Assembly: GCF_028898845.1 (NCBI RefSeq) | Contig: NZ_CP118574.1 | Coordinates: 7,055,001 to 7,119,000, forward strand | Reading direction: 5' to 3' | Length of the DNA stretch: 64,000 bases | From: Streptomyces sp. WZ-12 | GTDB lineage: Bacteria; Actinomycetota; Actinomycetes; Streptomycetales; Streptomycetaceae | In this document: positions 48,215 through 63,456 of the stretch, in pieces | Layout of the letters: the number at the start of each line of letters is the position of its first letter | Numbering within the stretch: the first letter of the stretch is position 1 | Notes under the pieces: generated by a model | What the model was told of the DNA's origin: nothing | What the model saw: the letters and a program-made list of their open reading frames with translations, nothing else | Database searches by the model: none | Position numbers and translations under genes: made by a program

Positions 48215-48223
48215 TTAACCGGC

Positions 48224-49003: not shown

Positions 49004-49020
49004 TTCCAGCCTCTTGGTCA

Positions 49021-49209: not shown

Positions 49210-49271
49210 GGCTTACTTCTCTCTCCACTCAGAGGCCCGCTTGTAGCTGCTGGCAGCCGTTCTAACGAGAG

Positions 49272-49313
49272 TAGCCCCTCCCAGAACTGCCCCAAACTGC
49301 CTGGGAAGGGCTA
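49272..49313 (-). promoter_or_regulatory. Long hairpin between the AT-hook gene and the small-gene operon
   Basis: TAGCCCCTCCCAG (49272-49284) and CTGGGAAGGGCTA (49301-49313) form a 13-bp stem with one mismatch. It begins two bases after a TAGGTACGAC repeat and lies in the leader of the gene at 49209, so it may be a terminator or attenuator. No T-run follows. Confidence 0.5.
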
Positions 49314-49315
49314 AT

Positions 49316-49325
49316 GTCGTACCTA
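49316..49325 (-). repeat. TAGGTACGAC repeat, copy 1
   Basis: The minus-strand 10-mer begins with the TAG stop of the AT-hook gene and is followed by a hairpin. Confidence 0.7.
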
Positions 49326-49436
49326 CTCGGCCTTCTTGGGCCTGCCCCGCTTCTTGCGCACTGGCTTCGAATCGGGAGTCTCTGAGCCACGAGCTACGGC
49401 GACGAAGGGCTTGACGGCCTCCTGGAGCTTGGCCAC
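49323..49436 (-). CDS. Short AT-hook-like protein, start uncertain
   Basis: The frame ends KPVRKKRGRPKKAE, a canonical AT-hook (RGRP flanked by Lys/Arg) that binds the minor groove of AT-rich DNA. Only a GTG at 49436 is a usual start near the end (37 residues). The frame is protein-like further upstream (GGELLFLLVPPGVEVGAENV) back to about 49500 but has no ATG, GTG or TTG in that stretch, so the true N-terminus is unclear. It is divergent from the integrase. Confidence 0.45.
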   Translation of the reverse strand: MAKLQEAVKPFVAVARGSETPDSKPVRKKRGRPKKAE

Positions 49437-49509
49437 GTTCTCGGCGCCGACCTCGACGCCTGGTGGGACCAGCAGGAAGAGTAACTCGCCGCCTGATCCA
49501 TCCGCCGCT

Positions 49510-49536
49510 GCGGGCCCGGCAGGTAGTCGGGCCCGC
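49510..49536. promoter_or_regulatory. Perfect hairpin between the AT-hook gene and the integrase
   Basis: GCGGGCCCG and CGGGCCCGC pair over 9 bp around GCAGGTAGT. It lies upstream of both divergent genes, so an operator or leader structure is more likely than a terminator. Confidence 0.4.
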
Positions 49537-49577
49537 TCCCATCTCTGGAGTCTCCCCTGCTGACCTTCGAGTTCACG

Positions 49578-50942
49578 ATGTACGAGATCCGCGTGCGGCC
49601 GCAGTACCCGAAGCCCTACCAGGTCCGTTGGCTGGTCGGTCCGAGGACACATGCCAAGAGCTTCGCCACCAAGCCCCTGGCCGACGGCCGGCGGTCCCAG
49701 TTGATGGCCGCTGCTCGAAAGGGCGAGCAGTTCGACGTCGAGACGGGTCTCCCCAAGTCCGAACTCGCCGCGCTCCAACCTCGGATGACCTGGTTCGACC
49801 ACGCCAAGGACTATGCGGAGATGAAGTGGTCCGAGGCCGCTTCGGCGAAGGGCCGGGCCACGCGTGCGGACGCCCTCGCCGCCGTCACCGCTGCTCTGGT
49901 CAGGGACATGAACGGAGCGCCCGCGCCGGCGGTACTACGGAGGGCGCTCACCGGCTACGCCTTCAACTTCTCCGAGCACCGGGCCGATCCGCCTGATCAG
50001 CTCATGGCCGCGCTCACGTGGCTGTCGGCCAAGGCCCTGCCCATGTCCGCCCTGGAGGACGACTCCGAGCCGGTCCGCTCCGCGCTGAAAGCGCTGAGCA
50101 CGCGGCTCAACGGGAAGCGAGCGGCGGCGACCACGATCACGAACCGCCGGACGGTCTTCAACAACGCGCTGCGGTACGCCGTTGAGCGGAAGCGCATCGC
50201 GATCAATCCGCTGCCGGCCATCGACTGGTCTCCTCCGGCGACGGACGACGAGATCGACTTCCGATACGTCCCAAACCCGCGACAAGCAGAGGAACTCATC
50301 AACGCCGTCGGGACGCTCGGCGCTCGCGGTGAACACCTCCATGCCTTCTTCGCGTGCATCTACTACGCGGCCACGCGCCCAGCCGAGGCGATGAACCTCC
50401 GGAAAAGCGACTGCACCCTTCCCAAGGACGGGTGGGGCGTCCTGCTGCTCTCCGGCAGCGCGTCGCGGGTGGGAGCGGCCTGGACGGACGACGGTAAGTC
50501 CTACGAAGAACGCGGGCTGAAGCGCCGGGCTCGTTCGTCCGTGCGCGACGTTCCGATCCCACCGAAGCTGGTGAAGATGCTGCGTGCCCACATCGACCGG
50601 TACGGCACGGCTCCGAACGGGCGGCTGTTCCGAGCGGCCCAGGGTGGGGTCGTGCTCAGCAAGGAGTACACAGACCTCTGGCAGGAGGCTCGCAAGGTGG
50701 CGCTCACTGCCGAGCAGATCGCTCAGCACTTCGCAGAGGTGCCGTACGCCGGGCGCAAGGCCGGCATCTCCCTCTGGATCACGTCAGGCGTCGCCCCGAC
50801 CGAGGTGGCCCGTCGCGCGGGCCACAGCGTGGCCGTCCTCTACAAGTTCTACGCCAAGGTGCTGGACGGGCAGCGGGACCAGGCCAATGCACTGATCGAG
50901 CGAGCGATGCGCGCGGAGCGGCCGCGGGTCTCGGAGCCCTAA
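49578..50942 (+). CDS. int: Tyrosine recombinase (integrase) of the mobile element
   Basis: A 454-residue integrase with an N-terminal arm-binding domain, a SAM-like core-binding domain at about 65-200, and a catalytic domain with Arg267 (ATRPAEAMNLR), Arg393 (YAGRKAGISLW), His416 (AGHSVAVLYKF) and the nucleophile Tyr425 (FYAKVLDGQ). The residue after Arg393 is Lys where relatives have His. It catalyses site-specific insertion and excision. Its 3' end points at a tRNA-Ser fragment 135 bp away, the usual place for the attachment site of this type. It is the only plus-strand gene in the element apart from the chimeric methyltransferase. Confidence 0.9.
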   Translation: MYEIRVRPQYPKPYQVRWLVGPRTHAKSFATKPLADGRRSQLMAAARKGEQFDVETGLPKSELAALQPRMTWFDHAKDYAEMKWSEAASAKGRATRADALAAVTAALVRDMNGAPAPAVLRRALTGYAFNFSEHRADPPDQLMAALTWLSAKALPMSALEDDSEPVRSALKALSTRLNGKRAAATTITNRRTVFNNALRYAVERKRIAINPLPAIDWSPPATDDEIDFRYVPNPRQAEELINAVGTLGARGEHLHAFFACIYYAATRPAEAMNLRKSDCTLPKDGWGVLLLSGSASRVGAAWTDDGKSYEERGLKRRARSSVRDVPIPPKLVKMLRAHIDRYGTAPNGRLFRAAQGGVVLSKEYTDLWQEARKVALTAEQIAQHFAEVPYAGRKAGISLWITSGVAPTEVARRAGHSVAVLYKFYAKVLDGQRDQANALIERAMRAERPRVSEP

Positions 50943-51012
50943 TCCCCGTCCACGCTCCGTCCACACAGGCTGGTCAGCGGTGCGCCAGACCGAACCGAGG
51001 TGAGACAAGAAA

Positions 51013-51059
51013 GCAGGTGGGCGGGGCCCCGGACCGCGCCGGAAACCCCACCCACCTGC
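51013..51059 (+). terminator. Hairpin after int, next to the tRNA fragment
   Basis: GCAGGTGGGCGGGG (51013-51026) and CCCCACCCACCTGC (51046-51059) pair over 14 bp with one mismatch; GAAA and TTTTC extend the dyad. A TTTTCTC tract follows. It can end int transcription or serve as an integrase arm site. Confidence 0.55.
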
Positions 51060-51076
51060 ACGTTTTCTCACCTGCG

Positions 51077-51126
51077 CGGAGGCTGTGGGATTTGAACCCA
51101 CGGTGGCGTTGCCGCCACGACAGTTT
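51077..51126 (-). other. 3' half of a tRNA-Ser gene (attachment-site-like)
   Basis: Read on the minus strand: AAACTGTC (end of an anticodon arm), GTGGCG-GCAA-CGCCAC (the long variable arm of a class II tRNA), the T arm GTGGG-TTCAAAT-CCCAC, and the acceptor strand AGCCTCCG. The 5' half is missing: upstream sequence does not pair. Class II arm plus AGCCTCC acceptor indicates tRNA-Ser, probably GCU. Such 3' halves mark att sites of tRNA-targeting integrases, and int is next to it. Confidence 0.75.
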
Positions 51127-51228
51127 GAGGGGGTGTGGGGATGCGTTGAGCGCTGTGATCACTTCGTCTGCACTCGGGTGGTACAAGCTCTGACGACTGT
51201 TCATCAAGGTCTCCTTCCGTATGAGAAA

Positions 51229-51260
51229 GGGAGCCTATCCGGAAGGTCGGACAGGCTCCC
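51229..51260 (-). terminator. Hairpin terminator after the nuclease-helicase gene
   Basis: GGGAGCCTATCCG and CGGACAGGCTCCC form a 13-bp stem with one mismatch and a 6-base loop, 21 bp after the minus-strand stop at 51281. The remaining DNA of the 338-bp gap 50943-51280 holds the tRNA fragment and a second hairpin but no gene. Confidence 0.75.
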
Positions 51261-51280
51261 TAAGTTGCGGCTATTTACGG

Positions 51281-53164
51281 CTATTGATCATCTACGAGGC
51301 TGCGGAGCATGTCGCGGGTCTCCTTGTCGGGGGAGAAAAGCACGGTGCCCTGCATGCCTCGGGTGAGGAGGACCTTGTAGGTGTTGCGGATGAGGTTCTC
51401 GAACTCGTCCTGCTTGGCGCGGGCGACGACGGTGTCCTCGCTGGCCTTCTTGTTGGCGATCCAGACGCCGTCGCGCCAGACGAAGTCGGGGCCGATGATG
51501 ACGCCGTTCCAGTCGTACTCGAAGCCTTGGGCGGTGTAGACGCAGCCGACTTGGGAGAAGCCGGCGGGGTCGGTGGCCCACAGATTCTTCGAGGGATAGC
51601 CTCCAACAGCGCGATCTCCCTGGACATTCCAGGGACGCTTCCAGTCAAAATCGGGGAGTTGGACATCATCGACGAGTCCAACGAACGTCTTGTTGTCATC
51701 GATGACGGGTTCGCTCCACGGCCAGCAGAAGCCTGCGGTCATGCGGGCCTGGTATCCGTTGCCCTGGTGGGACTGGAGGATGGCTTCCATCTCTTGGGGA
51801 GTGTCGGCGACCTGGACCTGGAAGTGATCGTCGCCCGCCCAGGGAGCAGGGCCGCCGGGAGCCAGGCCGAGGAGACGCAGGACCCACTCTTCGTAAGCGC
51901 GGCTTCCGCCGCAGCGGAACTGGCCGTCGAGGTTAACGTGACGGACGGCGAGGCCCTTGGCTGCGGCTGCGTCGTCGATCTCCTGAACGGTGCCCATTTC
52001 GCCGGGGCGTACCACCTGGTGCTCGTCGAGGAGGAAGACGGGGACGCGTGCTGCGTCGAGGAGTTCTTCGATCTGGCGGCGGTTGCTGCGCTTCTCGGTG
52101 CGTGTGAAGCGGGTGTTGGAGCTTTCCCGGATGCGGTGGGACTCGTCGCAGATCAGCACGTCGAGGCCGTTCTTCTCGGCTTGGACGAAGTTGTTGAAGT
52201 AGCGGAAGAGCTTCTGGATTCGGGAAGAGCCCTTGCCTGCGACCTTCTGCAAGGTCGTGGTGAAGGACTTCGAGCCGGTGGCGTGTACGGCGGTGTAGTT
52301 GTTGCGGTACATCTCGCCGAGGATTTCGAGGGCGATGACGCTCTTGCCTGAACCAGGGCCGCCTGTGACGACGATGACTTCCTTGAAGTCAGACTGCTTG
52401 GCCTTCTTCACCGCTCGCAGGACCAAGGAGTAGGCGACCTGCTGTTCGTTGAGGAGGTTGAACTGGGCGCGTTCCTTGATCTCTTCGGCGGCGACCTGCA
52501 TGAGCTGCTTGCTCGGGGCGATGGCTTCCGGGTGCAGGGCGTCTGCGGCTTCGGCGCCCGTTACGGGGGCAAGGCGGTCGGTGAGGTACTGCTGGAACTT
52601 GCCCTTGCTGGAGCCGGTGAACAACTGCCCGTACTCGTTTGGGTCTAGGTCAAACAGCGGGTCGACGCCGAAGTCTGTGGCGTTGTGGAGGAAGGCTGCT
52701 CCGCTAATGCGGTGTTCGTTGCCATGAAGGGACTTGGTGAAGTCGGCGATGTGGTCGCAGTAGCGGCGGACTTGGGCGACGGGGTGCAGCTTCGCGTGGT
52801 TCCCCATGCCCTTGACTACGACGAGGTCGTCGGCATCGGGAACCACGCTAACCTCGGTCCACTGCTTGAGTTCGACGACCACGTAGGAGGGCTCACCGGT
52901 CTTGGGGTGAGCACCGGCGAGGAGAGCGTCTACTCGGTAGCTGGAGAGCGGTACGGGGTATTCGATGAAGACCTCAACGTCTCCCAGCCCAGCGTCGAGC
53001 AGAGTGTTGGCCAGGGCCGGGAGGCTGCGCTTCCAGGATCGCTGCTCGCTCACGCCTGCCTCGTACCCGTAGGTGAACCGGAACTGCCCGGCGAGGTTCT
53101 CGACGAGCGTGTTGGCAGCAGCTTCCTTAACGAGGGCACGAGCAGACATGCGCAGTAAAGACAC
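51281..53164 (-). CDS. PD-(D/E)XK nuclease fused to Schlafen-group-3/DUF2075 SF1 helicase
   Basis: A 627-residue protein. The N-terminal part has a PD-(D/E)XK-like pattern (Asp79 in YRVDALLAG, Glu98-Leu-Lys100 in YVVVELKQW). From about 255 it is an SF1 helicase of the PF09848 (DUF2075) type: Walker A GGPGSGKS (268-275), Walker B DVLICDESHR (Asp340-Glu341), LLDEHQVVRPGE, and late motif YTAQGFEYDWNGVIIGPD. Such proteins process nucleic acids and turn up in defence and mobile loci; the role here is inferred. The start is GTG at 53164 with GGGGA six bases upstream; ATG at 53149 is possible. The next gene upstream starts 194 bp away. Confidence 0.82.
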   Translation of the reverse strand: MSLLRMSARALVKEAAANTLVENLAGQFRFTYGYEAGVSEQRSWKRSLPALANTLLDAGLGDVEVFIEYPVPLSSYRVDALLAGAHPKTGEPSYVVVELKQWTEVSVVPDADDLVVVKGMGNHAKLHPVAQVRRYCDHIADFTKSLHGNEHRISGAAFLHNATDFGVDPLFDLDPNEYGQLFTGSSKGKFQQYLTDRLAPVTGAEAADALHPEAIAPSKQLMQVAAEEIKERAQFNLLNEQQVAYSLVLRAVKKAKQSDFKEVIVVTGGPGSGKSVIALEILGEMYRNNYTAVHATGSKSFTTTLQKVAGKGSSRIQKLFRYFNNFVQAEKNGLDVLICDESHRIRESSNTRFTRTEKRSNRRQIEELLDAARVPVFLLDEHQVVRPGEMGTVQEIDDAAAAKGLAVRHVNLDGQFRCGGSRAYEEWVLRLLGLAPGGPAPWAGDDHFQVQVADTPQEMEAILQSHQGNGYQARMTAGFCWPWSEPVIDDNKTFVGLVDDVQLPDFDWKRPWNVQGDRAVGGYPSKNLWATDPAGFSQVGCVYTAQGFEYDWNGVIIGPDFVWRDGVWIANKKASEDTVVARAKQDEFENLIRNTYKVLLTRGMQGTVLFSPDKETRDMLRSLVDDQ

Positions 53165-53358
53165 AGAACATCCCCAGGCAACACGACGAAACGTGTGCGG
53201 GTGGGGGCATGTCCGCGTCTGCGCGCAGAAGCCCGGCGGGCCGCAACCAGAACGACGATCACTCTAATGGGTGCCACCGGCAGTTGAGAGCCTGCGTACA
53301 GAACTCACGGCCTTGCCCGGCCTACCAGACGACAGCAGGCAGGGCCAGGCCGCTGAGG

Positions 53359-53952
53359 TCAGTCGTCTCGGTGACCGCCCAGCTCAGCGAAGAGGAACCC
53401 CATCAAGAACCCGTCTTCCCACTGCGCCGCGTGCGCGGACCGCAGTTTCAGTGGGTCAGGACGATCCAGCTTGAGCATCTGGACAGCCTGAGTACTGCGA
53501 GCTTGAGCAACATGCACCATCGTCTTCGGATCGATGCGTCGTGCCCACTGTTGCTCGCGGTCGTGGCTCCAGTGGCCACCAATGATGCTGTTGGTAGCGC
53601 CCAGGAGATTGTGATCGGGCAGCTTCCCGAAGATCGAAGTCGTCTTGCGTTGCTCTACGAAAACAATTCCGTGCATCAGTCCTTCCGACCAGACGTGGAT
53701 GAAGTTCCTGAGGATCTCGTCAGCCCGAGGGCTAGGGGTCGACCAGAGGCCAGATGTCTCATCCGCTCGCTTCATGGCCAACTTGTCGACAGCGTTCATG
53801 TCAAAGCGCTTGCTGGCGGCAGCGCGAGTTCCCCCGTCGACATGGATGTCCCACTCGACGGTCATGTCTGTGGCCTCGGTAAGGCGCTGATAGTCAAGTG
53901 TGTCTGGCGTGGGGTGGCTAGTGCCGTCGAGCCGGGGGTCGTTCTGGCTCAT
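53359..53952 (-). CDS. Unknown protein coupled to Lsr2
   Basis: A 197-residue protein with a basic helix (AAASKRFDMNAVDKLAMKRA) and an aromatic-rich second half (HAAQWEDGFLMGFLFAELGG). No family was recognised and no membrane segment is convincing. The ATG at 53952 overlaps the lsr2 stop by four bases (ATGA), so both are made together. It could assist or modulate Lsr2, but that rests on coupling only. Confidence 0.65.
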   Translation of the reverse strand: MSQNDPRLDGTSHPTPDTLDYQRLTEATDMTVEWDIHVDGGTRAAASKRFDMNAVDKLAMKRADETSGLWSTPSPRADEILRNFIHVWSEGLMHGIVFVEQRKTTSIFGKLPDHNLLGATNSIIGGHWSHDREQQWARRIDPKTMVHVAQARSTQAVQMLKLDRPDPLKLRSAHAAQWEDGFLMGFLFAELGGHRDD

Positions 53953-54284
53953 ACCTGCGCCGCCTCGTACGCCTCGCGGATGTCAGCGGGCACGCGGCCA
54001 CGCTCGTTGATGCTGTAGCCGTTCTCCTTCGCCCAGGCGCGGATCTTCGCAGTGTCGGGGGACCCGTTGGACGCTGCACGCGCCTTGCCGCGTCCGGGCG
54101 TGGCACGCCCACCGGTCTTGCGGCTGGCCTTCACGAAGTTGGCCAGCGACTTGCGCAGCTTCTCCGCGTTGGCGTCGGAGAGGTCGATCTCGTAGGACTT
54201 ACCGTCGAGTGCGAAAACGACCGTCTCGTGGGCCTCGCCGCCGTCGAGGTCGTCGACGAGCAGGACCTGAACCTTCTGTGCCAC
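53949..54284 (-). CDS. lsr2: Lsr2-family nucleoid-associated silencer, element-encoded
   Basis: A 111-residue Lsr2: N-terminal dimerisation strands (MAQKVQVLLVDDLDGGEAHE), then a basic linker rich in Gly/Arg/Ala, and the C-terminal DNA-binding domain (IRAWAKENGYSINERGRVPA, with the Arg95-Gly96-Arg97 hook that enters the minor groove). Lsr2 bridges AT-rich DNA and silences foreign genes. The GTG at 54284 follows AAGGAG. An element-borne copy may cover its own DNA or interfere with the host Lsr2. Confidence 0.93.
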   Translation of the reverse strand: MAQKVQVLLVDDLDGGEAHETVVFALDGKSYEIDLSDANAEKLRKSLANFVKASRKTGGRATPGRGKARAASNGSPDTAKIRAWAKENGYSINERGRVPADIREAYEAAQV

Positions 54285-54397
54285 TGGTATTTCTCCTTGC
54301 GTATAGAGGTGGCGAGGCTAGCAGCCTGATGGCATTGACTTTAAGCCGTTCAATTGCCACCTACTGTGTGATGTCGAATTTGCGGATTTTGAGGGGG

Positions 54398-55444
54398 CTA
54401 TGTGCTAGGCCGTTTCCTCGGAGCTTTGACCGCGATGACCTTCTCGCCGCCGAGGACTGGCTTGTCCTCCGGACCCTTCCAGTGGCCCGGGATGTACTGC
54501 TGACGGTGCGAGTCGATGCTGGAATAGTAGGTGTTGCGCCAATAGCCGTTGACCCACCACTGGTGCTTCCACTCCACCTCCCGGGAGTCGCCCGTCGTAC
54601 CTGGGTCCCGAGTGGTGTGGCGACGTTGCAGGCTCACGATGCGCACTGGTTGGTCGGGGCGTCGAATGCCTGCGTTGGCAAATCGCCTGGAGTCGCCCCG
54701 CTTGATGCCTGGGCCGTTCTCCTGATCGGCGACGTTGTCCTGCTTGCAGAGTGCCCAGAACGCTGCGAGGAGCTGCTGGTAGTGCTCTGGTGTGGCTCCT
54801 TCAGGCGGTGGAGCACCCTTGATCATCTGGCCCCACTTGTTGCCATAGGGCCAGATCACGGAAGCTGTGCAGTAGAGCTTCGGGACTCTCCCGACGATCT
54901 CACGCTGGTCTGTTAGCCGTGCGACGGTCTCGGTGGAGACCCAGGGCAGGATGCAGATGCCTTCCTCTTCGATGGAGGCAGGTCGTTGAGGCGGGAGTGG
55001 GTACCACAGCATCGCTTCGATGGGCAGCAGGTGTGTTCCGATGTCGGCCAGCGGCTTCTGGAAGTACACCAAACCGTAGGGAGAGATCGGGTCGTCCTCG
55101 CGCAGTGGCTGGTCCGGCATGCTGGGGCCGGCCTGTTCCACGAGGTCGCACATGCTGGCCTCGGCCAAGAAGAGGTCAGCGAACTGGGTTCCTACACGAG
55201 CGATGTCGGCCAGCCTCCGCGCGGTAGCGGAGATGTCTACTTGTTCTCGCGCTACTTCACCGGGTTGGTAGGTGTGCGGCCGTGTGGCTCGGCGGGTCTG
55301 TTCGGCGATTCGTAGCTGCTCGGCAGTGAGAGGGCGCTCGTTCATGAGCACTCGCATTGTGTTCTCGCCCTGGTCCCCGGTGAACCATTCGAGCAGTTGC
55401 TTTCTGGTGTTGGCGGCCCGAGCGGCGTCAGCCTGAAGTGTCAT
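54398..55444 (-). CDS. Unknown element protein with HWR-type C-terminal motif
   Basis: A 348-residue protein, mostly helical at the N-terminus (1-110), with a central PYGLVYFQKPLADIG and a basic C-terminal segment EWKHQWWVNGYWRNTYY followed by HRQQYIPGHWKGPEDKPV (about 291-330). The spacing of aromatic, Arg, Trp and Pro residues there recalls the C-terminal motif of the AcrVA2-like genes upstream, so it may be a distant relative; I cannot show homology. The ATG is at 55444, 40 bp after the previous gene. Confidence 0.65.
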   Translation of the reverse strand: MTLQADAARAANTRKQLLEWFTGDQGENTMRVLMNERPLTAEQLRIAEQTRRATRPHTYQPGEVAREQVDISATARRLADIARVGTQFADLFLAEASMCDLVEQAGPSMPDQPLREDDPISPYGLVYFQKPLADIGTHLLPIEAMLWYPLPPQRPASIEEEGICILPWVSTETVARLTDQREIVGRVPKLYCTASVIWPYGNKWGQMIKGAPPPEGATPEHYQQLLAAFWALCKQDNVADQENGPGIKRGDSRRFANAGIRRPDQPVRIVSLQRRHTTRDPGTTGDSREVEWKHQWWVNGYWRNTYYSSIDSHRQQYIPGHWKGPEDKPVLGGEKVIAVKAPRKRPST

Positions 55445-55484
55445 GGTGTTCTTTCGGTGTGAACAGGGCGCGTTGTACCTGGAC

Positions 55485-56558: not shown

Positions 56559-56615
56559 GGCGGTTCCAGTTGGTCTGTGCTGCTTTGAGTGTGAAATAGG
56601 GGGCGGGAAGGTCCG

Positions 56616-57098
56616 TCATGCAGCATCTAGCTTCTTGAGAAGGCGCTGGGCTTCAGCGAGAACCTTCTTACTGGCGAGGATCTCCTTGGGCAGCTTCACA
56701 TAGTTCTTGTGCGCCTCGTCAAGCTGCTTTTGCAGTTTGGGCCGTTCCCGGTTGGAGTAAAGGGCCAAGCCGAGGCGGGCCCGGGATACGGCTGAAGACA
56801 GATCGACGAGCGCGTCCAGGTCCTTTGCTCCCGTGCTGATCTGGAGCGTCTTGACTGCCTCGCTCAGTCGCTTTTCCTCCAGGGCCACCATGTCCTCGTA
56901 GAGGTCGATGAACCAGCCACAAAGCTCCTCAACGTCGAAGATCACAGTGGTCTTGTATTCGTACACCTCCGTCGGAAATGGTTTCTGATCGGGCGGTGCG
57001 TTGCGGAGAAGGGTGCGGTAGCGCTTGAAGCGGGCCATGGTCAGGCCCGTGATTTCACAAAACTCCTGGGCGGAGATCATGACGTAGGGGGCAGGCAT
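56616..57098 (-). CDS. HTH / coiled-coil protein A
   Basis: A 160-residue protein: an N-terminal MerR- or KfrA-like helix-turn-helix (MISAQEFCEITGLTMARFKR) and a long charged C-terminal helix (PKLQKQLDEAHKNYVKLPKE, then LAEAQRLLKKL) likely to form a coiled coil. The ATG at 57098 is used; ATG at 57080 is possible. It lies 57 bp upstream of AcrVA2-like gene A and just after a TAGGTACGAC copy. The layout repeats that of 58655-59098 before AcrVA2-like gene B. Confidence 0.65.
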   Translation of the reverse strand: MPAPYVMISAQEFCEITGLTMARFKRYRTLLRNAPPDQKPFPTEVYEYKTTVIFDVEELCGWFIDLYEDMVALEEKRLSEAVKTLQISTGAKDLDALVDLSSAVSRARLGLALYSNRERPKLQKQLDEAHKNYVKLPKEILASKKVLAEAQRLLKKLDAA

Positions 57099-57146
57099 GT
57101 CAGCCGTTCTTCGTGATGGGCGTGAGGGCTTCAGGGCTCCTGGACG

Positions 57147-57156
57147 GTCGTACCTA
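57147..57156 (-). repeat. TAGGTACGAC repeat, copy 2
   Basis: The 10-mer begins with the TAG stop of the 111-residue gene and lies 49 bp before the start of HTH/coiled-coil gene A. Confidence 0.7.
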
Positions 57157-57489
57157 TCCTCCGAGCCAGACGCGGCGATCGTTGCCCCACAGGTAGACGT
57201 ACTTCATCTCACGGTCGAACTGCTCCACGCTGCCTGCCTCCTTCAGATCCCTGATCAAGCGGGCCAGAACCAAGCCCTCACCACGCTCATTGGTGCGGGG
57301 GTTGGAGCGGAGCTGCTGGAGCTGTTCGTCTGTGCGGTAGTGACGAGACTTGCGCAGCTCCGTGCACACAGCCTCCTTCACCTGCTCAAAGCGGGCGGCG
57401 CCCTCCTCAGTGGTGAGGTCAAGCCCCCTGGCGGCGTCGATGTGCTGGTTGACGTCCAGCTCCTCGATCCAGACATTGACCGGGCTCAT
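57154..57489 (-). CDS. Unknown small element protein
   Basis: A 111-residue charged, mainly helical protein (TTEEGAARFEQVKEAVCTEL, LARLIRDLKEAGSVEQFDRE). The ATG at 57489 follows AAGGAGAAGAAG, an unusually strong ribosome site created by a 20-bp tandem duplication at the end of the upstream gene. No family was recognised. It sits between the AcrVA2-like genes A and B. Confidence 0.65.
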   Translation of the reverse strand: MSPVNVWIEELDVNQHIDAARGLDLTTEEGAARFEQVKEAVCTELRKSRHYRTDEQLQQLRSNPRTNERGEGLVLARLIRDLKEAGSVEQFDREMKYVYLWGNDRRVWLGG

Positions 57490-57528
57490 TGCTTCTTCTC
57501 CTTGCTCATTGCTTCTTCTCCTTCATCT
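57487..57528 (-). repeat. 20-bp tandem duplication at a gene junction
   Basis: AAGGAGAAGAAGCAATGAGC is present twice in a row. The first copy encodes the C-terminus KEKKQ and stop of AcrVA2-like gene B and opens a 7-codon frame; the second ends that frame and provides the ribosome site and ATG for the next gene. Confidence 0.8.
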
Positions 57529-58639
57529 TCACGGGGCGGACTGCAACGTCGTGGACAGATCCTTGGTCGAGGAGGTCCTGAGAAACCCAGTAGGGCTTGA
57601 CCCACTTCAGTCTCTCGGTTGCGCGCCCCTGCCCGGTCCAGAAGGTTCTCCAGTGACCAGAACGCTGGTGAGGACGCTGACGTCGACCGCTCTCCTCGCC
57701 GCCGCTTTGGGCGTTGGCGCCCGAGCGTTGCTTCGCGGCATGCAGCGCGGGACCGAGCCGGAAACCCACCTTGACGACGGTGTCGATGTCGCTGGGGCGG
57801 GACCGTCGCTGCTTCTTGCCGGCCTTCGCCTTCCCGGCACGGTTGACCGCAGGCTGGTAGGTCTCGGTATCGGGCTGGTCCGTGCAGACGTACAACAGCG
57901 AGTTGAACACCTGCGTGACGTAGCGACGCAGCCATGCCTCCAGCTTGCTGTTGTCCTCTTCGCCGAGGTCATCGTTGAAGTGGAACTTCGCAACGGTCGC
58001 GTTGACTACGTCGTCGACCGTCAAGTGCTCGCCTCGTAGAGGAATGGTGCAGCGCAGAGTTTGGAGGACCGGCCCACGACCGGGGGCGTCGAGCCATCCG
58101 ACGAACATCAGGCCGAGATCCTCGCGGCGTACCTCGTTGGTGGAGCACACCTGCCGGGCCGAGTTGAAGCGGCCGAAGACGATCGCTCCTATGGGTACCC
58201 CAATGTGCTCCCGATAGTAGGCGACCTCGGGGTCGGACCAGTCGGGCCGAGGAAGCATCACGAACGGGTTCGAGTGCGGAAGATCCTCCAGGACGGTCGT
58301 GGGGATCTTGCTCACGGAAGACTCAGAGAGGTAATGGAGCATGAGATCGTCCATGGCGTAGACGACCTTCGACTTCCCCCACAAGTTGAAGATCGCGGTA
58401 TCCCGAGCCGACGCCATGAAGTCGCTGTACGCTGCCGCACTGTGAGTGGGGAGGAACTTGATCAGGTGCGGAGGTACACGAGTGTCCTCCCTGGCCTCCA
58501 ATAGCAAGGCGGCGTATTCGCGCACCCCAGGAGTGGACGTGCAGTAGCTGATGTGCCCTGCAAGCGCCTCGATGCATTTCTTCGCGATTTCGAGAACTTG
58601 CTTGCTCGTGCGGCGTTCAGGCACAGCTTGCGTACTCAC
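57506..58639 (-). CDS. AcrVA2-like protein B
   Basis: A 377-residue protein, paralogue of the product of 55485-56558. Matching blocks: FNLWGKSKVVYAMDDLMLHY and VLEDLPHSNPFVML (about 84-129), NSLLYVCTDQPD (about 246-257), and the C-terminal RPHQRSGHWRTFWTGQGR followed by LKWVKPYWV (about 322-352), the strongest match to the AcrVA2 C-terminus. A basic Lys/Arg-rich linker (about 267-281) precedes it. The GTG at 58639 follows AAGGGG. It is 15 bp after HTH/coiled-coil gene B. The biological target is unknown. Confidence 0.72.
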   Translation of the reverse strand: MSTQAVPERRTSKQVLEIAKKCIEALAGHISYCTSTPGVREYAALLLEAREDTRVPPHLIKFLPTHSAAAYSDFMASARDTAIFNLWGKSKVVYAMDDLMLHYLSESSVSKIPTTVLEDLPHSNPFVMLPRPDWSDPEVAYYREHIGVPIGAIVFGRFNSARQVCSTNEVRREDLGLMFVGWLDAPGRGPVLQTLRCTIPLRGEHLTVDDVVNATVAKFHFNDDLGEEDNSKLEAWLRRYVTQVFNSLLYVCTDQPDTETYQPAVNRAGKAKAGKKQRRSRPSDIDTVVKVGFRLGPALHAAKQRSGANAQSGGEESGRRQRPHQRSGHWRTFWTGQGRATERLKWVKPYWVSQDLLDQGSVHDVAVRPVKMKEKKQ

Positions 58640-58654
58640 TGCTCCCCTTCATTC

Positions 58655-59098
58655 TTAATTAGTGATGCCGTGTTCGCGCTCGTAAGATTTCACGAACGGC
58701 TCCAGGCTCAGATTGCGATCTTGAAGCTTCTTTTCCTCTTCACGGAGGGCCGTAAGTTGACTCTCTACCGCCTGTTTCTGCTCAGCCAGCCATGTCAGGC
58801 GTCGATTGTTCTCGCTCAGCTCCTTACATGAATTCTTGTAGCGTTCCTCACTCTTTCCATCGCGGAGTCGCTCGCTGTACTTCTCGATGTAGGAAGCGAC
58901 CTCAGCCTCGACGAAATAAGGGACGGGATGGCCCCCGCCAGACTGACGCTTCTTTAGGCATACGGTCTTGAGGGACTTGCGCCAGTTGGAGAAAGTCTGG
59001 CGCGAGATCCCCGCACGCGAAACCACATCAGGGCCTGAGATCAGTTCGCCCCACTTGTCGCGAAAATCCGGCCGCAACCATTCGACGTCTTCGGCCAT
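58655..59098 (-). CDS. HTH / coiled-coil protein B
   Basis: A 147-residue protein with an N-terminal helix-turn-helix (SGPDVVSRAGISRQTFSNWR, about 21-40) and a heptad-like helix from about 80 to 140 (LSENNRRLTWLAEQKQAVES). This resembles KfrA-type plasmid regulators in layout. The ATG at 59098 directly follows a TAGGTACGAC repeat, and a perfect 9-bp inverted repeat lies 19 bp further upstream, so autoregulation is plausible. It forms a pair with AcrVA2-like gene B. Confidence 0.68.
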   Translation of the reverse strand: MAEDVEWLRPDFRDKWGELISGPDVVSRAGISRQTFSNWRKSLKTVCLKKRQSGGGHPVPYFVEAEVASYIEKYSERLRDGKSEERYKNSCKELSENNRRLTWLAEQKQAVESQLTALREEEKKLQDRNLSLEPFVKSYEREHGITN

Positions 59099-59108
59099 GT
59101 CGTACCTA
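59099..59108 (-). repeat. TAGGTACGAC repeat, copy 3
   Basis: The 10-mer touches the ATG of HTH/coiled-coil gene B without any gap; it lies between the AGGAAGAGG ribosome site and the start. Confidence 0.7.
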
Positions 59109-59116
59109 GCCTCTTC

Positions 59117-59139
59117 CTGGGAAATAGTTCATTTCCCAG
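59117..59139 (-). promoter_or_regulatory. Palindromic operator before HTH/coiled-coil gene B
   Basis: CTGGGAAAT (59117-59125) and ATTTCCCAG (59131-59139) are perfect 9-bp complements around 5 bases. TAGAAT, a possible minus-strand -10, overlaps its upstream edge (near 59140-59145). This suits binding by the HTH protein just downstream. Confidence 0.5.
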
Positions 59140-59195
59140 ATTCTACTGGGCTCAGATGCAAGGACCGGGGCCTGGCAGACGTGGGCTGTACCAGG

Positions 59196-59951
59196 CTAGG
59201 GAGCCGGAACGTACACTCGCATAGCCGGCGGCACCCAACGCGACACCAGGCGCAGCAACTCCCGAGCAGCGAACAGCTTCGCCACCTCGCTCGCGCCGTC
59301 CAGGCTGACCTCCATCCGGCTCGCGGAGGTGAAGAAGAGCATCCGACGAGCCTGATTGATCAGCTCGATCACCGCCGGATAGTAGCCCCCCTCCTGGTAC
59401 GCCAGCCGCGCGCTCACCGCAGCCTCCGCCAGGTAGAGCGAGACCATGCTGCTCATCCCGTACCGCTTCATGTTGTACACACTCTCGGAGCTGCTCTCGC
59501 CTTCCAAACGCCCCACGATGCCAGCCGCCTCGTCCTCCAGATCCTGAAGCTGACTCGGCAGTTGCTTGAGCGCGGCGCGCCAGCTATCGAACTGGTGGTA
59601 GGACTGTCGCGCGTCCTGGTACGCCTTCCAGACCACATTGCTGTGCCACTCCATCTCCAGCACGGCGGCCATCAGCGCGCCCTTCCGTGAGGGCCACGGG
59701 CCGGATGACATCTCCTTGAGCATCTCGGCCAACTGGTTGACGGTCAGGGCTGCTAGCCTCGGCTTCCGCTGGGCTTCCCGGCGCATGCGACGCGTCTCCT
59801 CATAGCTGCACACGTCTTTCCAAAGCATCTCGATCTCGGCGGCCTGAGCATCGAAGTGAGGCAGATCGACCTTCTCGACCAGCTCCTGGATTGCCTCCAC
59901 CCGCTGGCGCAGCCACGGGTCCACCACGTCCATGTAGCTCTTCTCGGACAT
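59196..59951 (-). CDS. Unknown element protein, helical
   Basis: A 251-residue, mostly alpha-helical protein with acidic and aromatic patches (FDAQAAEIEMLWKDVCSYEE, LYLAEAAVSARLAYQEGGYY). No motif was recognised. The ATG at 59951 has AAGGA six bases upstream; ATG at 59966 is possible. An IS element now separates it from the gene cluster further right, so it may have lost its original promoter. Confidence 0.62.
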   Translation of the reverse strand: MSEKSYMDVVDPWLRQRVEAIQELVEKVDLPHFDAQAAEIEMLWKDVCSYEETRRMRREAQRKPRLAALTVNQLAEMLKEMSSGPWPSRKGALMAAVLEMEWHSNVVWKAYQDARQSYHQFDSWRAALKQLPSQLQDLEDEAAGIVGRLEGESSSESVYNMKRYGMSSMVSLYLAEAAVSARLAYQEGGYYPAVIELINQARRMLFFTSASRMEVSLDGASEVAKLFAARELLRLVSRWVPPAMRVYVPAP

Positions 59952-60062
59952 CTGCATCCTTGTCATAGTCGGAGCAGTGGCTCGGCCCTAACTTGAACCA
60001 CCACCAAGCGAATTGAGCATGAGAACGTGACAGCGCGCATGAGCTGAAAGTCATTGAGCACT

Positions 60063-60964
60063 GAGCCTTTGCCAACCTCACTTTGAGCAGTTCAGGTGAA
60101 GCGTCAGCACTGCTTGAACGACGCCGGTGATGCGGGTGGTGCTGCAGCGGAGTTTGCGCAGGAGGCGCCACGTTTTGAGCGTGGCCATCGCCTGCTCTCC
60201 GAGAGCCCGAATGCGCGCATGTGCGACGTTAACAGCTTGCTGACCTGCGGAGAGGTTGTTGTGCCGGCCGCGGAAGGGCACCCGGACACTCCCGCCGGCG
60301 CCCTGGTATCCCTTGTCCGCCCAGCAGGCCAGGTCGGCATCAGACAGGGCGTTGATGATGCCGTGAGTGCGGGCGGCCTTGATGTCGTGGACGGCGCCGG
60401 GCAGGGCGGGCGATGCCCACAACAGTCGGCCGTGCGGGTCGGTGAGGACCTGCACGTTCATCCCGTGCTTGCGATGCTTGCCCGAATAGAAGGGTCGGTC
60501 GGCGGCGATCCGGTCGATCGGCAGCAGGGTCCCGTCCAAGATGACGAACGCCTTGCCCTGTGCCGCCTTCACCGCCGCCGCGAGCTCCGGCGCCAGGGCG
60601 GCCAGCAGTTCCACGGCTTCGGCGACATATCGGTAGACGGTGCTGAGACCAACCTTGAACCCGGCTGCGAGCTGCGCATACGTGTGCCCACAGCGCAGGT
60701 GCGCCAACACCAGCAGGGCCTGTCGGCCAGCGGGCAGCCGGCGCCAGCGCGTACCCCGCCCGGCCCGGTGTGCAGCCAGTTGAGCCGTCAGAAACCGCAG
60801 GTGGGAAGTGGACAGGTCGAGCGCGGACGGGTAGACAAGCACGCGAAGCTCCTGGAGCAGACGAGCGATCTTGGTCGTGAACTCGTCTACCAGGAGCTTC
60901 GTCATGTCACGCACCTGGGCCCCACCCCAACACCCCATCAAGCCCAGCAGGTTGGCAAAGGCTC
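60063..60964 (-). mobile_element. IS5-family insertion sequence, 902 bp
   Basis: Perfect 16-bp terminal inverted repeats: GAGCCTTTGCCAACCT (60063-60078) and AGGTTGGCAAAGGCTC (60949-60964). Both ends are flanked by ACT, consistent with a 3-bp target duplication, so the copy is probably recent and complete. It carries one transposase gene. Confidence 0.9.
60078..60905 (-). CDS. IS5-family DDE transposase
   Basis: A 275-residue transposase with an N-terminal helix-turn-helix domain (LRCGHTYAQLAAGFKVGLST) and a DDE_Tnp_4-type catalytic domain: Asp in FVILDGTLLPIDRI, Asp in CWADKGYQGAG, and Glu in RIRALGEQAMATLK. The chosen ATG at 60905 starts MTKLLVDEFTTK; a start at 60941 would add 12 residues. 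The stop lies at the inner edge of the left terminal repeat. Confidence 0.9.
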   Translation of the reverse strand: MTKLLVDEFTTKIARLLQELRVLVYPSALDLSTSHLRFLTAQLAAHRAGRGTRWRRLPAGRQALLVLAHLRCGHTYAQLAAGFKVGLSTVYRYVAEAVELLAALAPELAAAVKAAQGKAFVILDGTLLPIDRIAADRPFYSGKHRKHGMNVQVLTDPHGRLLWASPALPGAVHDIKAARTHGIINALSDADLACWADKGYQGAGGSVRVPFRGRHNNLSAGQQAVNVAHARIRALGEQAMATLKTWRLLRKLRCSTTRITGVVQAVLTLHLNCSK

Positions 60965-61022
60965 ACTGTCACGGGTGCATCAAGTGCTGAGAATCGAACG
61001 ACAGGCAACGGAGCGCAGCGAG

Positions 61023-61499
61023 CTACCGTGCCCCAGCGCGCTTGCGGTCCTCAGGCCGATACACGCGGATCGGGTCAGGAATGGTGCGCCAAAGGGCCGT
61101 GCGGCCTTCTCTGGCCCGCGTCACGGTCATCACGGCGTCGGTCTCCGGCAGCATGCCCGAGCTGTACAACTGCTGAGCGATGAACCGCAGGGCATCCCGT
61201 CGCACGCCGGGCTGCACGACCACACCCCAGTCGTACTCAGCACGCCAGGCCCGCCACTTCTCCACCGGAACGTCCACGCTCCAGTGCATACGCACAATAA
61301 TCCGGCCGTTGACCACCCGAGCGGCCCCAGTGCGCAGCCCGTAGAACCACGTCTCGGTCTCCTCTACCCCGGGAATGGTCTCCACGGCCGTCGACAGGTA
61401 GTACGTGAACTCGACGGGGCCCCTGTCAACCGCGCACTCGTAGGTGCTCACCCATGAGTCCAGGCCGACGGACCAGTGGGTGTACAGCCGCGCCCTCAC
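61023..61499 (-). CDS. Unknown element protein
   Basis: A 158-residue protein with several Trp and Tyr residues (ETWFYGLRTGAARVVNGRII, VRMHWSVDVPVEKWRAWRAE), suggesting a compact beta-rich fold. No family was recognised. The GTG at 61499 overlaps the stop of a 24-codon gene just upstream (GTGA), so it is translationally coupled. It ends 58 bp before the IS. Confidence 0.62.
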   Translation of the reverse strand: MRARLYTHWSVGLDSWVSTYECAVDRGPVEFTYYLSTAVETIPGVEETETWFYGLRTGAARVVNGRIIVRMHWSVDVPVEKWRAWRAEYDWGVVVQPGVRRDALRFIAQQLYSSGMLPETDAVMTVTRAREGRTALWRTIPDPIRVYRPEDRKRAGAR

Positions 61500-61570
61500 A
61501 GGCGCTGCTTCTGAAGAGCTGCACCGAAACCGTAGATGACGCTGCTGAGTTGAACGACGTAGAGTGCCAT
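61496..61570 (-). CDS. 24-residue micro-protein, hydrophobic
   Basis: ATG 61570 to TGA 61496 encodes MALYVVQLSSVIYGFGAALQ followed by KQRL. GGAGG lies seven bases before the ATG, an excellent ribosome site, and the stop overlaps the next gene's GTG by four bases. It may be a small membrane protein or a translational coupler. No homologue is known to me. Confidence 0.55.
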   Translation of the reverse strand: MALYVVQLSSVIYGFGAALQKQRL

Positions 61571-61605
61571 ACTGAGCCTCCAGTGCTCTGTGGAGTGACT
61601 GGCTG

Positions 61606-61649
61606 GCAGGGCGGCCCCGCTGATGTGACGAGACGTAGGGCCGCCCTGC
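61606..61649 (-). terminator. Long hairpin between 61664 gene and micro-protein gene
   Basis: GCAGGGCGGCCC (61606-61617) and GGGCCGCCCTGC (61638-61649) are perfect 12-bp complements with a 20-base loop, 15 bp after the minus-strand stop at 61664. Confidence 0.65.
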
Positions 61650-61663
61650 GCACGCACTGATAT

Positions 61664-61975
61664 CTACTTTTCGGATTGAGGCTCGTAGCCGGGGCCGCGC
61701 AGATCGAGCCGATGGATCATGTCGTTGGCTTCGTCGATGGCCTCCAACAGAGTGCTGCTCGCGTAATCGCCGAAGAAGTTGCCGTCCGGGGCGCCGCTGC
61801 TGTACAGGTACCAGCCGGTGGCTCCCTGCTCGACCGTGGACCTGCGGCGCTTCTCCAGCTCGTAGATCACACCAAACAGCCCGGCCTGGTACGTGCCCGT
61901 CGACTGGCGCTCCCAGCCGATACCACCCTCTCCTTCAATGAGCGTCTTGCCACCGGACTGGACCCGCTTAGCCAT
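61664..61975 (-). CDS. Unknown small element protein
   Basis: A 103-residue protein (MAKRVQSGGKTLIEGEGGIG start; GVIYELEKRRRSTVEQGATG; a charged helical end LLEAIDEANDMIHRLDLRGP). The ATG at 61975 overlaps the stop of the upstream gene by eight bases, with GGAG before it. No family was recognised. Confidence 0.62.
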   Translation of the reverse strand: MAKRVQSGGKTLIEGEGGIGWERQSTGTYQAGLFGVIYELEKRRRSTVEQGATGWYLYSSGAPDGNFFGDYASSTLLEAIDEANDMIHRLDLRGPGYEPQSEK

Positions 61976-62483
61976 CCGCCAGCTCCAGGCTTGCCAGGGA
62001 GGCATACCGGGTAGCGAACTGCTGCGCCGTGCTGCCGGGATCCGACCGGTAGGAACCGTGGGCCCACTCGTACGGGATCCCTTCAGCCGGGATAGTGGCC
62101 ACCACGAACTCCTCGGGACCGCGTTGGGCGAAGATCAGCCGACGGTCGGCAACGGGGTAGCACAGCTTGACTTCCCAGCCCTGGATCATCACCGGGTCCT
62201 TCACCACGGGAGCGTTGAATCCGGTAGGCGGGATGTAGAGCCGCAGCCCGTTGACGAGCTTGTCGGAGAAGGTGCCTCTGGCCTGCGGGATGATCCCCTC
62301 GATGCCAGGCGGGAAGTTCTCCGCATCCGCAGCGTCCGAAGCCGCCTTGTACGTCTTGAACAGAACACCCCCCGCGCGCTGGATGCGGGCTTGCTCCCCC
62401 TTGGTGGAGACCGAAACTTCCTCCACCGCCCTCTCGAACCCCAACCCGCCGGAGTGCTGGACCAGGGTGTACATCGTCGACAT
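61968..62483 (-). CDS. Unknown element protein
   Basis: A 171-residue protein starting MSTMYTLVQHSGGLGFERAV, with FSDKLVNGLRLYIPPTGFNA and a C-terminal helix (TAQQFATRYASLASLELADG). GGGAGAG precedes the ATG at 62483 by three bases. Function unknown. Its leader contains a CGGGC/GCCCG hairpin and starts at a TAGGTACGAC repeat. Confidence 0.65.
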   Translation of the reverse strand: MSTMYTLVQHSGGLGFERAVEEVSVSTKGEQARIQRAGGVLFKTYKAASDAADAENFPPGIEGIIPQARGTFSDKLVNGLRLYIPPTGFNAPVVKDPVMIQGWEVKLCYPVADRRLIFAQRGPEEFVVATIPAEGIPYEWAHGSYRSDPGSTAQQFATRYASLASLELADG

Positions 62484-62555
62484 CGTCTCTCCCAGAGTTT
62501 TCGGGCATGAAAAGCCCGGCCTCCTACATCCACGTGTGTCTCGGGCCAGGCAGGT

Positions 62556-62565
62556 GTCGTACCTA
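62556..62565 (-). repeat. TAGGTACGAC repeat, copy 4
   Basis: The 10-mer begins with the TAG stop of the 118-residue gene and lies 72 bp before the next start. Confidence 0.7.
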
Positions 62566-62919
62566 CAGCTCGCGCCACGACTGAGTGGCGGAGTCGAAGT
62601 AGTGGATCTCAGTGCAGCCCACATTGGGCTCGCCGAAGCCATCGAGCGGGGCGAAGTCGTCCTCGTTGCCCTCGTCGTCCTCCGAGGTGATGATCCGGCC
62701 CGTGTAGTTCAGGACCTGATCGGCGTCGTACATGCGGAAGGTGCGCCCCTCGCCCTTACGCAGCCGCGCCTCAATCTGGGGGGCGATGTTGCGCGGACCC
62801 ATGGTGCCGGTCTCGTCGCGTCCCCCCGACGGTTCGTGCTCGATGTCAATGATCCAGCCGTACGACGCTGTACTGGCTTCCTCGGCCCCAATCTGGTGCG
62901 CTACTTCAGCTCCCGGCAT
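62563..62919 (-). CDS. Unknown small element protein
   Basis: A 118-residue acidic protein (TSEDDEGNEDDFAPLDGFGE near the C-terminus; IEARLRKGEGRTFRMYDADQ in the middle). GGAGCAGG precedes the ATG at 62919. It overlaps the stop of the Cys-rich gene upstream by 14 bases. No family was recognised. Confidence 0.62.
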   Translation of the reverse strand: MPGAEVAHQIGAEEASTASYGWIIDIEHEPSGGRDETGTMGPRNIAPQIEARLRKGEGRTFRMYDADQVLNYTGRIITSEDDEGNEDDFAPLDGFGEPNVGCTEIHYFDSATQSWREL

Positions 62920-63073
62920 GATCCTGCTCCGTCTCTCGGTCCGTGTCGCACTTCCTGCACAGGCAGAACACGGACGCGCTCATCAGCGTCTCCGGGCAAA
63001 TCTCCTGGTAACAGATGTTCTCGTTGTCTTCACCGCAGTCTCGGCAGCGGTCCGAGTTGTCCCGCACGATCAC
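62906..63073 (-). CDS. Small zinc-ribbon-like Cys-rich protein
   Basis: A 55-residue protein with seven Cys in zinc-site spacing (CRDCGEDNENICYQEICPET, then FCLCRKCDTD). The GTG at 63073 has CAGGG five bases upstream and is the first plausible start after the preceding stop. A structural zinc protein or a small regulator is likely; the function is unknown. Confidence 0.55.
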   Translation of the reverse strand: MIVRDNSDRCRDCGEDNENICYQEICPETLMSASVFCLCRKCDTDRETEQDHAGS

Positions 63074-63085
63074 GAAGCCCTGGTC

Positions 63086-63095
63086 GTCGTACCTA
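63086..63095 (-). repeat. TAGGTACGAC repeat, copy 5
   Basis: The 10-mer begins with the TAG stop of the 120-residue gene and lies 13 bp before the next start. Confidence 0.7.
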
Positions 63096-63455: not shown

Positions 63456-63456
63456 A

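What the first reader, a model, noticed from the sequence alone, without database searches (positions are those of the whole stretch)
49316..63095. Five copies of TAGGTACGAC at gene boundaries, all in one orientation, only in the element
Exact copies lie at 49316-49325, 57147-57156, 59099-59108, 62556-62565 and 63086-63095 (minus strand). In four the first three bases are the TAG stop of the upstream gene; in the fifth the repeat touches the next ATG. A random 10-mer is expected far less than once in 16 kb. Near matches occur at 55472-55481 (gene boundary, two mismatches) and 54594-54603 (inside a gene, one mismatch). It could be a stoperator-like repressor site as in mycobacteriophage L5, an RNA processing or stop-start signal, or a binding site of one of the element's HTH proteins. 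I did not see it in the chromosomal part, but that scan was by eye.
Basis: partly seen in the sequence, partly recalled or inferred. Interest (0 to 1): 0.78.

Follow-up and report, generated by a model that had tools for sequence, protein, structure and literature searches.

The report
Oriented gene-boundary signal in Streptomyces prophages
A ten-letter DNA word recurs, always facing the same way, between the early genes of a large virus lying dormant in a Streptomyces chromosome, and three related dormant viruses carry the same word in the same kind of place, so it is very probably a control signal for those genes whose reader is still unknown.

Summary
TAGGTACGAC occurs five times exactly in the window; a sixth copy lies just beyond. 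All six face one way in the early leftward genes of a ~110-kb Streptomyces prophage; the 9.5-Mb genome has nine copies. Three related prophages repeat the pattern: 28 exact copies in four early regions, no exact copy on the opposite strand of anything fetched from them. In all four it is the most over-represented oriented 10-mer. The conserved unit is 10 bp with no conserved flank. At two orthologous spacers it is unchanged while the next 60 nt are only 37% and 33% identical. Its TAG closes a frame open for 60 or more codons in 19 of 28 copies; sites occupy 26 of 75 gene boundaries with gaps of 40 nt or more, against 1 of 37 tighter ones. So it is a real, selected site. Best reading: it works like the stoperators of phages L5 and R4. 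Membership is not supported: no L5/R4-type repressor was found in the prophage, no late-gene array, and no copy upstream of its early operon. An RNA-level signal is a strong rival. A MerR/BldC-like protein is only a weak candidate reader.

The parts
49316..49325 (-). exact site; TAG closes a frame open for 203 codons; followed after 2 nt by a terminator-like hairpin
54594..54603 (-). one-mismatch copy (CAGGTACGAC) inside gene 54398-55444; probably incidental
55472..55481 (-). two-mismatch copy (CAGGTACAAC) just after the stop of gene 55485-56558; uncertain
57147..57156 (-). exact site; TAG is the stop of gene 57154-57489; the orthologous boundary in G394 has the same site
59099..59108 (-). exact site directly before the ATG of the winged-HTH gene 58655-59098
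62556..62565 (-). exact site; TAG is the stop of gene 62563-62919; the orthologous boundary in G394 has the same site
63086..63095 (-). exact site; TAG is the stop of gene 63093-63455; the orthologous boundary has the site in all four prophages
58655..59098 (-). winged-HTH protein with a long C-terminal helix (MerR/BldC-like), weak candidate reader of the site
48215..64000 (.). left part of the ~110-kb prophage (left end in the 3' part of a TrmH-like gene; right end at G000:C1:7212723-7212815)

Best explanation
TAGGTACGAC is a selected, asymmetric cis-acting punctuation site of the early leftward operon of a family of ~110-kb temperate Streptomyces phages. The most likely mechanism is stoperator-like: a sequence-specific protein binds the 10-bp site in the DNA and, in the one orientation relative to RNA polymerase, blocks or alters elongation at the ends of translated blocks, so that early genes stay off in the lysogen or are tuned during infection. 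Shown: the sites, their orientation, their place at gene boundaries, their 10-bp extent and their conservation in four prophages. Inferred: that a protein binds, that it binds DNA, and that it acts on elongation.
For: Six of nine genomic copies lie in 16.3 kb on one strand. It is the top oriented 10-mer of the examined stretch in four prophages, with 28 exact early copies and no exact copy on the opposite strand of any fetched stretch. Ten conserved columns and no flanking column above 0.25 bit among 47 core matches. Orthologous boundary 63086 keeps the site in 4 of 4; at 62556 and 57147 own and G394 share the exact site with 37% and 33% ungapped identity in the next 60 nt. Sites at 26 of 75 boundaries with gaps of 40 nt or more and at 1 of 37 tighter ones. 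The R4 comparator shows a repeat with similar habits: 17 copies, 12 outside genes, 14 on the strand opposite to the neighbouring genes.
Against: No L5/R4-type repressor family in the prophage. No copy with up to 2 mismatches upstream of own early operon (the relatives have scattered 2-mismatch hits there). Copies confined to the early arm, whereas R4's repeat is in both arms. In own and G394 the first exact copy is more than 2 kb into the operon. Two of six boundaries that own shares with G394 lack the site in G394. No binding or transcription data.
Confidence: 0.45

Rival explanations
1. RNA-level signal: UAGGUACGAC in the early message is read as RNA where translation ends, as an endonuclease processing or decay site or as an antitermination (nut-like) entry site.
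For: Sense strand only; placed at the stop codon or in ribosome-free gaps; 13 of 46 terminator-like hairpins of the early regions start within 80 nt after a site, some within 2-4 nt; the same spacers hold tRNA-like minihelices in G394 and G393.
Against: The 60 nt after a site fold no better than other gene ends (median -19.4 against -16.1 kcal/mol, 28 against 49, p=0.13); 33 of 46 hairpins have no site within 80 nt upstream; no complement of 7 nt or more in own upstream noncoding region; known nut sites are single, not repeated (recalled).
Confidence: 0.32
2. Translation-associated sequence like the SAS repeats of Cluster K mycobacteriophages: it helps initiation or stop-start coupling.
For: An ATG or GTG follows the site directly in 5 of 28 exact copies, and in 3 of these a gene is seen to start there (own 59099, G394 23773 and 9202); TAG doubles as stop codon in 14 of 28 by my gene calls. 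G224 has a true start-associated repeat, AGAGGAGAG, at 7 of 8 copies 4-6 nt before ATG/GTG.
Against: Most copies are not at a start codon; several stand before a hairpin; the word has no GGAGG core; almost absent from tightly coupled boundaries (1 of 37).
Confidence: 0.1
3. Boundary sequence that serves recombination between gene modules.
For: At 63086 the gene on one side is conserved in four phages while G392 has another gene on the other side.
Against: One orientation only and confined to the early arm; four of six boundaries shared with G394 keep the site with the same two genes.
Confidence: 0.06
4. Promoter element (TAGGTA as a -10 box, a recalled resemblance).
For: Other Streptomyces elements carry repeated TTGAC...TAGAAT promoters at boundaries.
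Against: No -35 signal: mean best match to TTGACA 2.64 of 6 at the 28 sites against 2.70 at 2000 random positions; several copies stand directly before a terminator-like hairpin.
Confidence: 0.03

Closest known systems
Stoperators of Cluster A mycobacteriophages (L5, Bxb1, TipsytheTRex) and of Streptomyces phage R4
   Same: Short asymmetric site, many copies, predominantly one orientation relative to transcription, in short intergenic spaces (passages of PMC6550527, PMC9283540, PMC10276819).
   Different: 10 bp instead of 13; different sequence; early arm only; no copy upstream of own early operon; no L5/R4-type repressor in the prophage.
Start Associated Sequences (SAS) of Cluster K mycobacteriophages
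   Same: Asymmetric, oriented repeat in non-structural genes; the stop codon of the upstream gene may lie inside it (passages of PMC3203893).
   Different: SAS are 13 bp, contain AGGAG and lie typically 3-7 bp before the start; here few copies are next to a start. G224, a relative without this motif, has an SAS-like repeat.
17-bp repeats of Cluster O mycobacteriophages (Corndog)
   Same: Many copies, many intergenic, function unknown (passages of PMC4351075).
   Different: Those are inverted repeats without meaningful orientation.
nut sites of lambdoid phages (recalled)
   Same: Lie after a stop codon and before terminators in an early operon.
   Different: One per operon with a boxB hairpin; here up to ten exact copies and no shared hairpin.

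Membership tests
L5/R4 stoperator system | multi-copy asymmetric site oriented with transcription | tested here: met
   28 exact early copies, 0 exact on the opposite strand of the fetched stretches. With one mismatch allowed, plus/minus counts are 3/11, 1/12, 5/14 and 3/18.
L5/R4 stoperator system | sites mostly in short intergenic spaces | tested here: met
   26 of 28 exact copies are outside called genes or overlap only a gene end; 2, both in G393, are inside called genes. Gene calls are rough.
L5/R4 stoperator system | same site also acts as operator at the early promoter | tested here: inconclusive
   No match with up to 2 mismatches on either strand of own 68.0-72.7 kb; G392, G393 and G394 have 2-mismatch hits there; the promoter is not mapped.
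L5/R4 stoperator system | sites spread over both early and late arms | tested here: not met
   Own: 6 of 6 exact copies in the early arm. Four same-strand copies lie outside it in relatives; one of them is antisense in the terminase gene, the other three I did not resolve. In R4 the repeat is in both arms.
L5/R4 stoperator system | cognate Gp71/gp29-type repressor in the phage | tested here: not met
   phrog_357 and phrog_3929 find R4, but nothing in this prophage or in virus record G396; other hits are on other contigs or elsewhere in the chromosome; blastp of R4 gp29 gives no significant hit.
L5/R4 stoperator system | protein binding that halts elongation in one orientation | not testable with these tools
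   needs binding and reporter assays
Cluster K SAS | 3-7 bp before the start codon of most carrier genes | tested here: not met
   ATG or GTG follows directly in 5 of 28 exact copies.
Cluster K SAS | contains a Shine-Dalgarno core (AGGAG) | tested here: not met
   seen directly in the 10-bp word
nut-type antitermination site | hairpin (boxB) after the linear element | tested here: not met
   no extra folding after the sites, p=0.13; RNA fold only, a small hairpin could be missed
sigma-70 promoter | -35 element 15-19 nt upstream | tested here: not met
   2.64 against 2.70 of 6 matches

The most novel reading that the evidence does not exclude
A new RNA-level punctuation code of phage operons: UAGGUACGAC marks the end of each translated block of the early message and recruits a phage factor that cuts or licenses the transcript there, side by side with tRNA-like minihelices, in phages some of which also carry a 16S-rRNA-like segment upstream of the same operon.
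Probability: 0.15. Interest if true: 0.85.

Novelty: new variant of a known kind. Interest (0 to 1): 0.6.

Why it matters
It gives a family of ~110-kb temperate Streptomyces phages (relatives of Alone3 and BRock by terminase) a sharply defined, testable control site whose reader is unknown. If DNA-bound, it is a stoperator-like system with a different repressor and bears on how a bound protein stops RNA polymerase in one orientation only. If RNA-bound, it would be a new way of punctuating a polycistronic phage message. Either way, clusters of the word mark these prophages in Streptomyces genomes.

Tried and rejected
Chance: rejected. Genome counts: of 392 genomes of the genus only G000 (7) and G048 (9) have more than 4 copies on a strand, but the same word read backwards, the tool's control, reaches 9 in G094 and 7 in G255 and G284, so it is the clustering and not the count that is telling. 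Promoter: rejected, no -35 signal. Conserved hairpin or terminator partner: not significant. Base pairing with own upstream noncoding RNA: no complement of 7 nt or more in the region searched; G392, G393 and G394 have a few, near the number expected. A TTTTCATGCC tail shared by some terminators also occurs without the motif, G091 included. HTH gene 71339-71848 as reader: present in own, G393 and G224, not found in G392 (partial) and G394, so it does not follow the motif. wHTH 58655-59098: kept as weak. Genes shared by own, G393 and G394 but not G224, G091 or Alone3 were listed; none is an evident nucleic-acid binder to my eye, and I did not scan them all against family libraries. The 377-aa early protein: nothing in phages or IMG/VR; six of 392 genomes, whose G025, G147, G351 and G224:C7 regions do not show the motif among their top repeats. 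120-aa family: only the S. rimosus virus record. An 18-letter pattern of the 63086 site: 6 virus records, one the S. rimosus one; the other 5 not examined. Literature: the string TAGGTACGAC is in 5 papers, none about phages by title (listing only); searches for 'stoperator', start-associated sequences, BRock and oriented intergenic repeats in Streptomyces prophages (0 papers) showed no description of this motif in listings; only passages of five papers were read. Rfam: nothing for the motif.
Full report
WHAT WAS CHECKED. The five exact copies of TAGGTACGAC are at 49316, 57147, 59099, 62556 and 63086, all on the minus strand. With one mismatch there are six hits in the 64-kb window against 0.95 expected, and 0 of 100 shuffles reach six. 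The 9.55-Mb genome has nine exact copies, six of them within 16.3 kb on one strand, the other three scattered. The sixth lies just past the window (L001:1584-1593). Of 392 genomes of the genus only this one (7 on one strand) and G048 (9) have more than four copies on a strand; the backwards control word reaches 9 in one genome, so counts alone would not convince, the clustering does.

WHAT THE ELEMENT IS. The stretch is the early leftward region of a prophage of about 110 kb. Its left end is in the 3' part of a TrmH-like gene; a 76%-identical copy of 93 bp of that gene end lies at G000:C1:7212723-7212815. To the right follow terminase, portal and major capsid genes on the plus strand, recognised by homology to annotated Alone3 genes. 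The terminase is 55.8-56.4% identical to those of six Streptomyces phage records (Alone3, LuckySocke, BRock twice, GiJojo, pSt2308). Alone3 has no exact copy of the motif.

RELATIVES. Terminase searches gave three prophages with the motif: G392 (Streptomyces sp. UNOC14_S4), G393 (S. rimosus NRRL WC-3904; same terminase coordinates as in G048, and taken to be the prophage of virus record G396) and G394 (Streptomyces sp. NRRL F-4489). Two more distant ones have none: G224 (terminase 72%) and G091 (57%). In each of the four the motif is the most over-represented oriented 10-mer of the stretch examined, 35-60 kb each. Exact copies plus/minus in everything fetched: own 0/6, G392 0/6, G393 0/8, G394 0/12, G224 0/0, G091 0/0, Alone3 0/0; with one mismatch 3/11, 1/12, 5/14, 3/18, 0/1, 0/3, 6/4. 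Four of the exact minus copies lie outside the early regions (G392 32541, antisense in the terminase gene; G393 78536; G394 55633 and 82232) and were left out. That leaves 28: 6, 5, 7 and 10. G392 is known over 35 kb only, and the G394 contig may be partial.

ANATOMY. Over 47 early core matches (28 exact, 19 near) no flanking column from -30 to +50 exceeds 0.25 bit. The matches were chosen mainly by their core, so only positions 1-2 (T 39 of 47, A 37 of 47) and the flanks are independent measures. In 19 of 28 exact copies the TAG closes a frame open for at least 60 codons, against 4 and 5 in the two other frames; in 14 of 28 a gene of my own caller ends exactly there. That caller is rough, so boundary counts are approximate. 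Sites, near copies included, sit at 26 of 75 called boundaries with gaps of 40 nt or more and at 1 of 37 tighter ones (Fisher p=1e-4). ATG or GTG follows the site directly in 5 of 28; in own 59099, G394 23773 and G394 9202 a gene is seen to start there, in G392 15351 the ATG is followed at once by TGA, and G393 34551 is open. Two exact copies are inside called genes, both in G393 (39793 and 30931).

CONSERVATION. The boundary at 63086 keeps the exact site in all four prophages. The gene downstream reads through the site and is itself conserved in G393 and G394 (80% and 87% over 60 nt), while G392 has another gene there (32%). At 62556 and 57147 own and G394 share the exact site with 37% and 33% ungapped identity in the next 60 nt. 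At 64740 (L001:740-749) both have the site touching ATG, 9 of 10 identical. Of six boundaries that own shares with G394, four keep the site and two (65584 and 59099) do not.

COMPARATOR. R4 is described as having a repressor-stoperator system (PMC10276819, passages). The same k-mer method finds ACTTRCACA as its top repeat; that this is the stoperator is my inference, since I did not see the published consensus. It occurs 17 times, 12 outside genes, 14 on the strand opposite to the neighbouring genes, in both arms. Our motif resembles it in orientation and placement but is confined to the early leftward arm.

PARTNERS. R4 gp29 (annotated 'similar to L5 gp71') belongs to phrog_3929 and more weakly phrog_357. 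Six-frame searches with both find R4 but nothing inside this prophage and nothing in G396; own has a hit at G000:C1:1349982, elsewhere in the chromosome (E 2e-6), and G048, G392 and G394 have weak hits on other contigs for phrog_357. The two families also ring in 8 and 5 of 14 control genomes at the lax threshold used. The wHTH protein 58655-59098 is shared by the four prophages at 28-37% identity to own and more distantly by G224. Its model (pLDDT 91.9) shows a winged HTH and a helix of about 60 residues. Structural neighbours are not significant at 0.001: BldC-DNA complexes (E 0.075) and a phage MerR-like protein (E 0.0027). The site lies directly before this gene in own, 63 nt before it in G392 (one mismatch) and about 150 nt before it in G393, and is missing within 170 nt in G394. 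Thirteen loci with distant relatives of the protein have no copy within the 20 kb fetched. So it is a candidate only.

DNA OR RNA. Nothing here decides. For DNA speaks the precedent of stoperators. For RNA speak the sense-only placement at the ends of translation and a setting with other RNA elements: tRNA-like minihelices, a 16S-like segment and, in G224, a Pistol ribozyme match. Against a hairpin-coupled RNA site: no extra folding after the sites (p=0.13), and 33 of 46 terminator-like hairpins have no site within 80 nt upstream. Against classical repression: no site upstream of own early genes, and the first exact copies come more than 2 kb into the operon in own and G394, though not in G393.

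VERDICT. The class, an oriented gene-boundary repeat of an actinobacteriophage, is known; the sequence, the phage family, the early-only distribution and the missing known repressor make it a new variant.

Noticed in passing
L001:4279-4325 (-) and L015:3528-3683 (-): 16S-rRNA-like segments in noncoding DNA near the early genes of own prophage (32.6 bits, below the gathering score of 50, E 4e-7) and of the G224 prophage (67.3 bits, E 5e-18). A paired change keeps the hairpin (TTGGTGAG/CTCACCAA in G224, TAGGTGAG/CTCACCTA in own). Not seen in G392, G393 or G394 by a simple pattern.
   Followed up: partly
L015:3000-3038 (-): Pistol ribozyme match, cut by the end of the stretch searched, 39.7 bits (gathering 34.5), in the G224 prophage.
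   Followed up: no
L052:12163-12224 (+), L014:19582-19625 (-), L050:19580-19655 (-), and after sites G394 21136 and 17826: tRNA-like minihelices (acceptor-like stem plus T-arm) in early spacers; ARAGORN reports no tRNA in the stretches scanned. Folding against shuffles is mixed: z 0.07, -1.42 and -2.11.
   Followed up: partly
L014 and L015 (G224:C1:6142438-6148366): AGAGGAGAG repeated 8 times on the early strand, 7 of them 4-6 nt before ATG or GTG: a start-associated repeat in a relative that lacks TAGGTACGAC.
   Followed up: no
window 51076-51126: tRNA-3'-end-like segment beside the tyrosine recombinase gene 49578-50942, with an identical 51-bp copy at G000:C1:4489048 and a 97% copy at 4479119, 10 kb apart: possible attachment sites of another element.
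   Followed up: no
window 49348-49450: 88% identical 103-bp segment at G000:C1:938085, elsewhere in the chromosome.
   Followed up: no
window 59117-59139 (-): Perfect inverted repeat CTGGGAAAT-gaact-ATTTCCCAG between a TAGAAT box and the winged-HTH gene; a likely operator of that gene (by eye).
   Followed up: no
window 60078-60941 (-): DDE transposase gene (DDE_Tnp_4) inserted in the early leftward region.
   Followed up: no
L107, L111, L112: Other Streptomyces elements with repeated, oriented TTGAC...TAGTAGAATT promoter-like units (6, 5 and 4 copies).
   Followed up: no
L002:9497-13534 (+): Genes that by eye read like a nucleotidyltransferase, a sulfatase, a formylglycine-generating-enzyme-like protein and a sugar epimerase, downstream of the capsid gene in the prophage (ORFs; no family search).
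   Followed up: no
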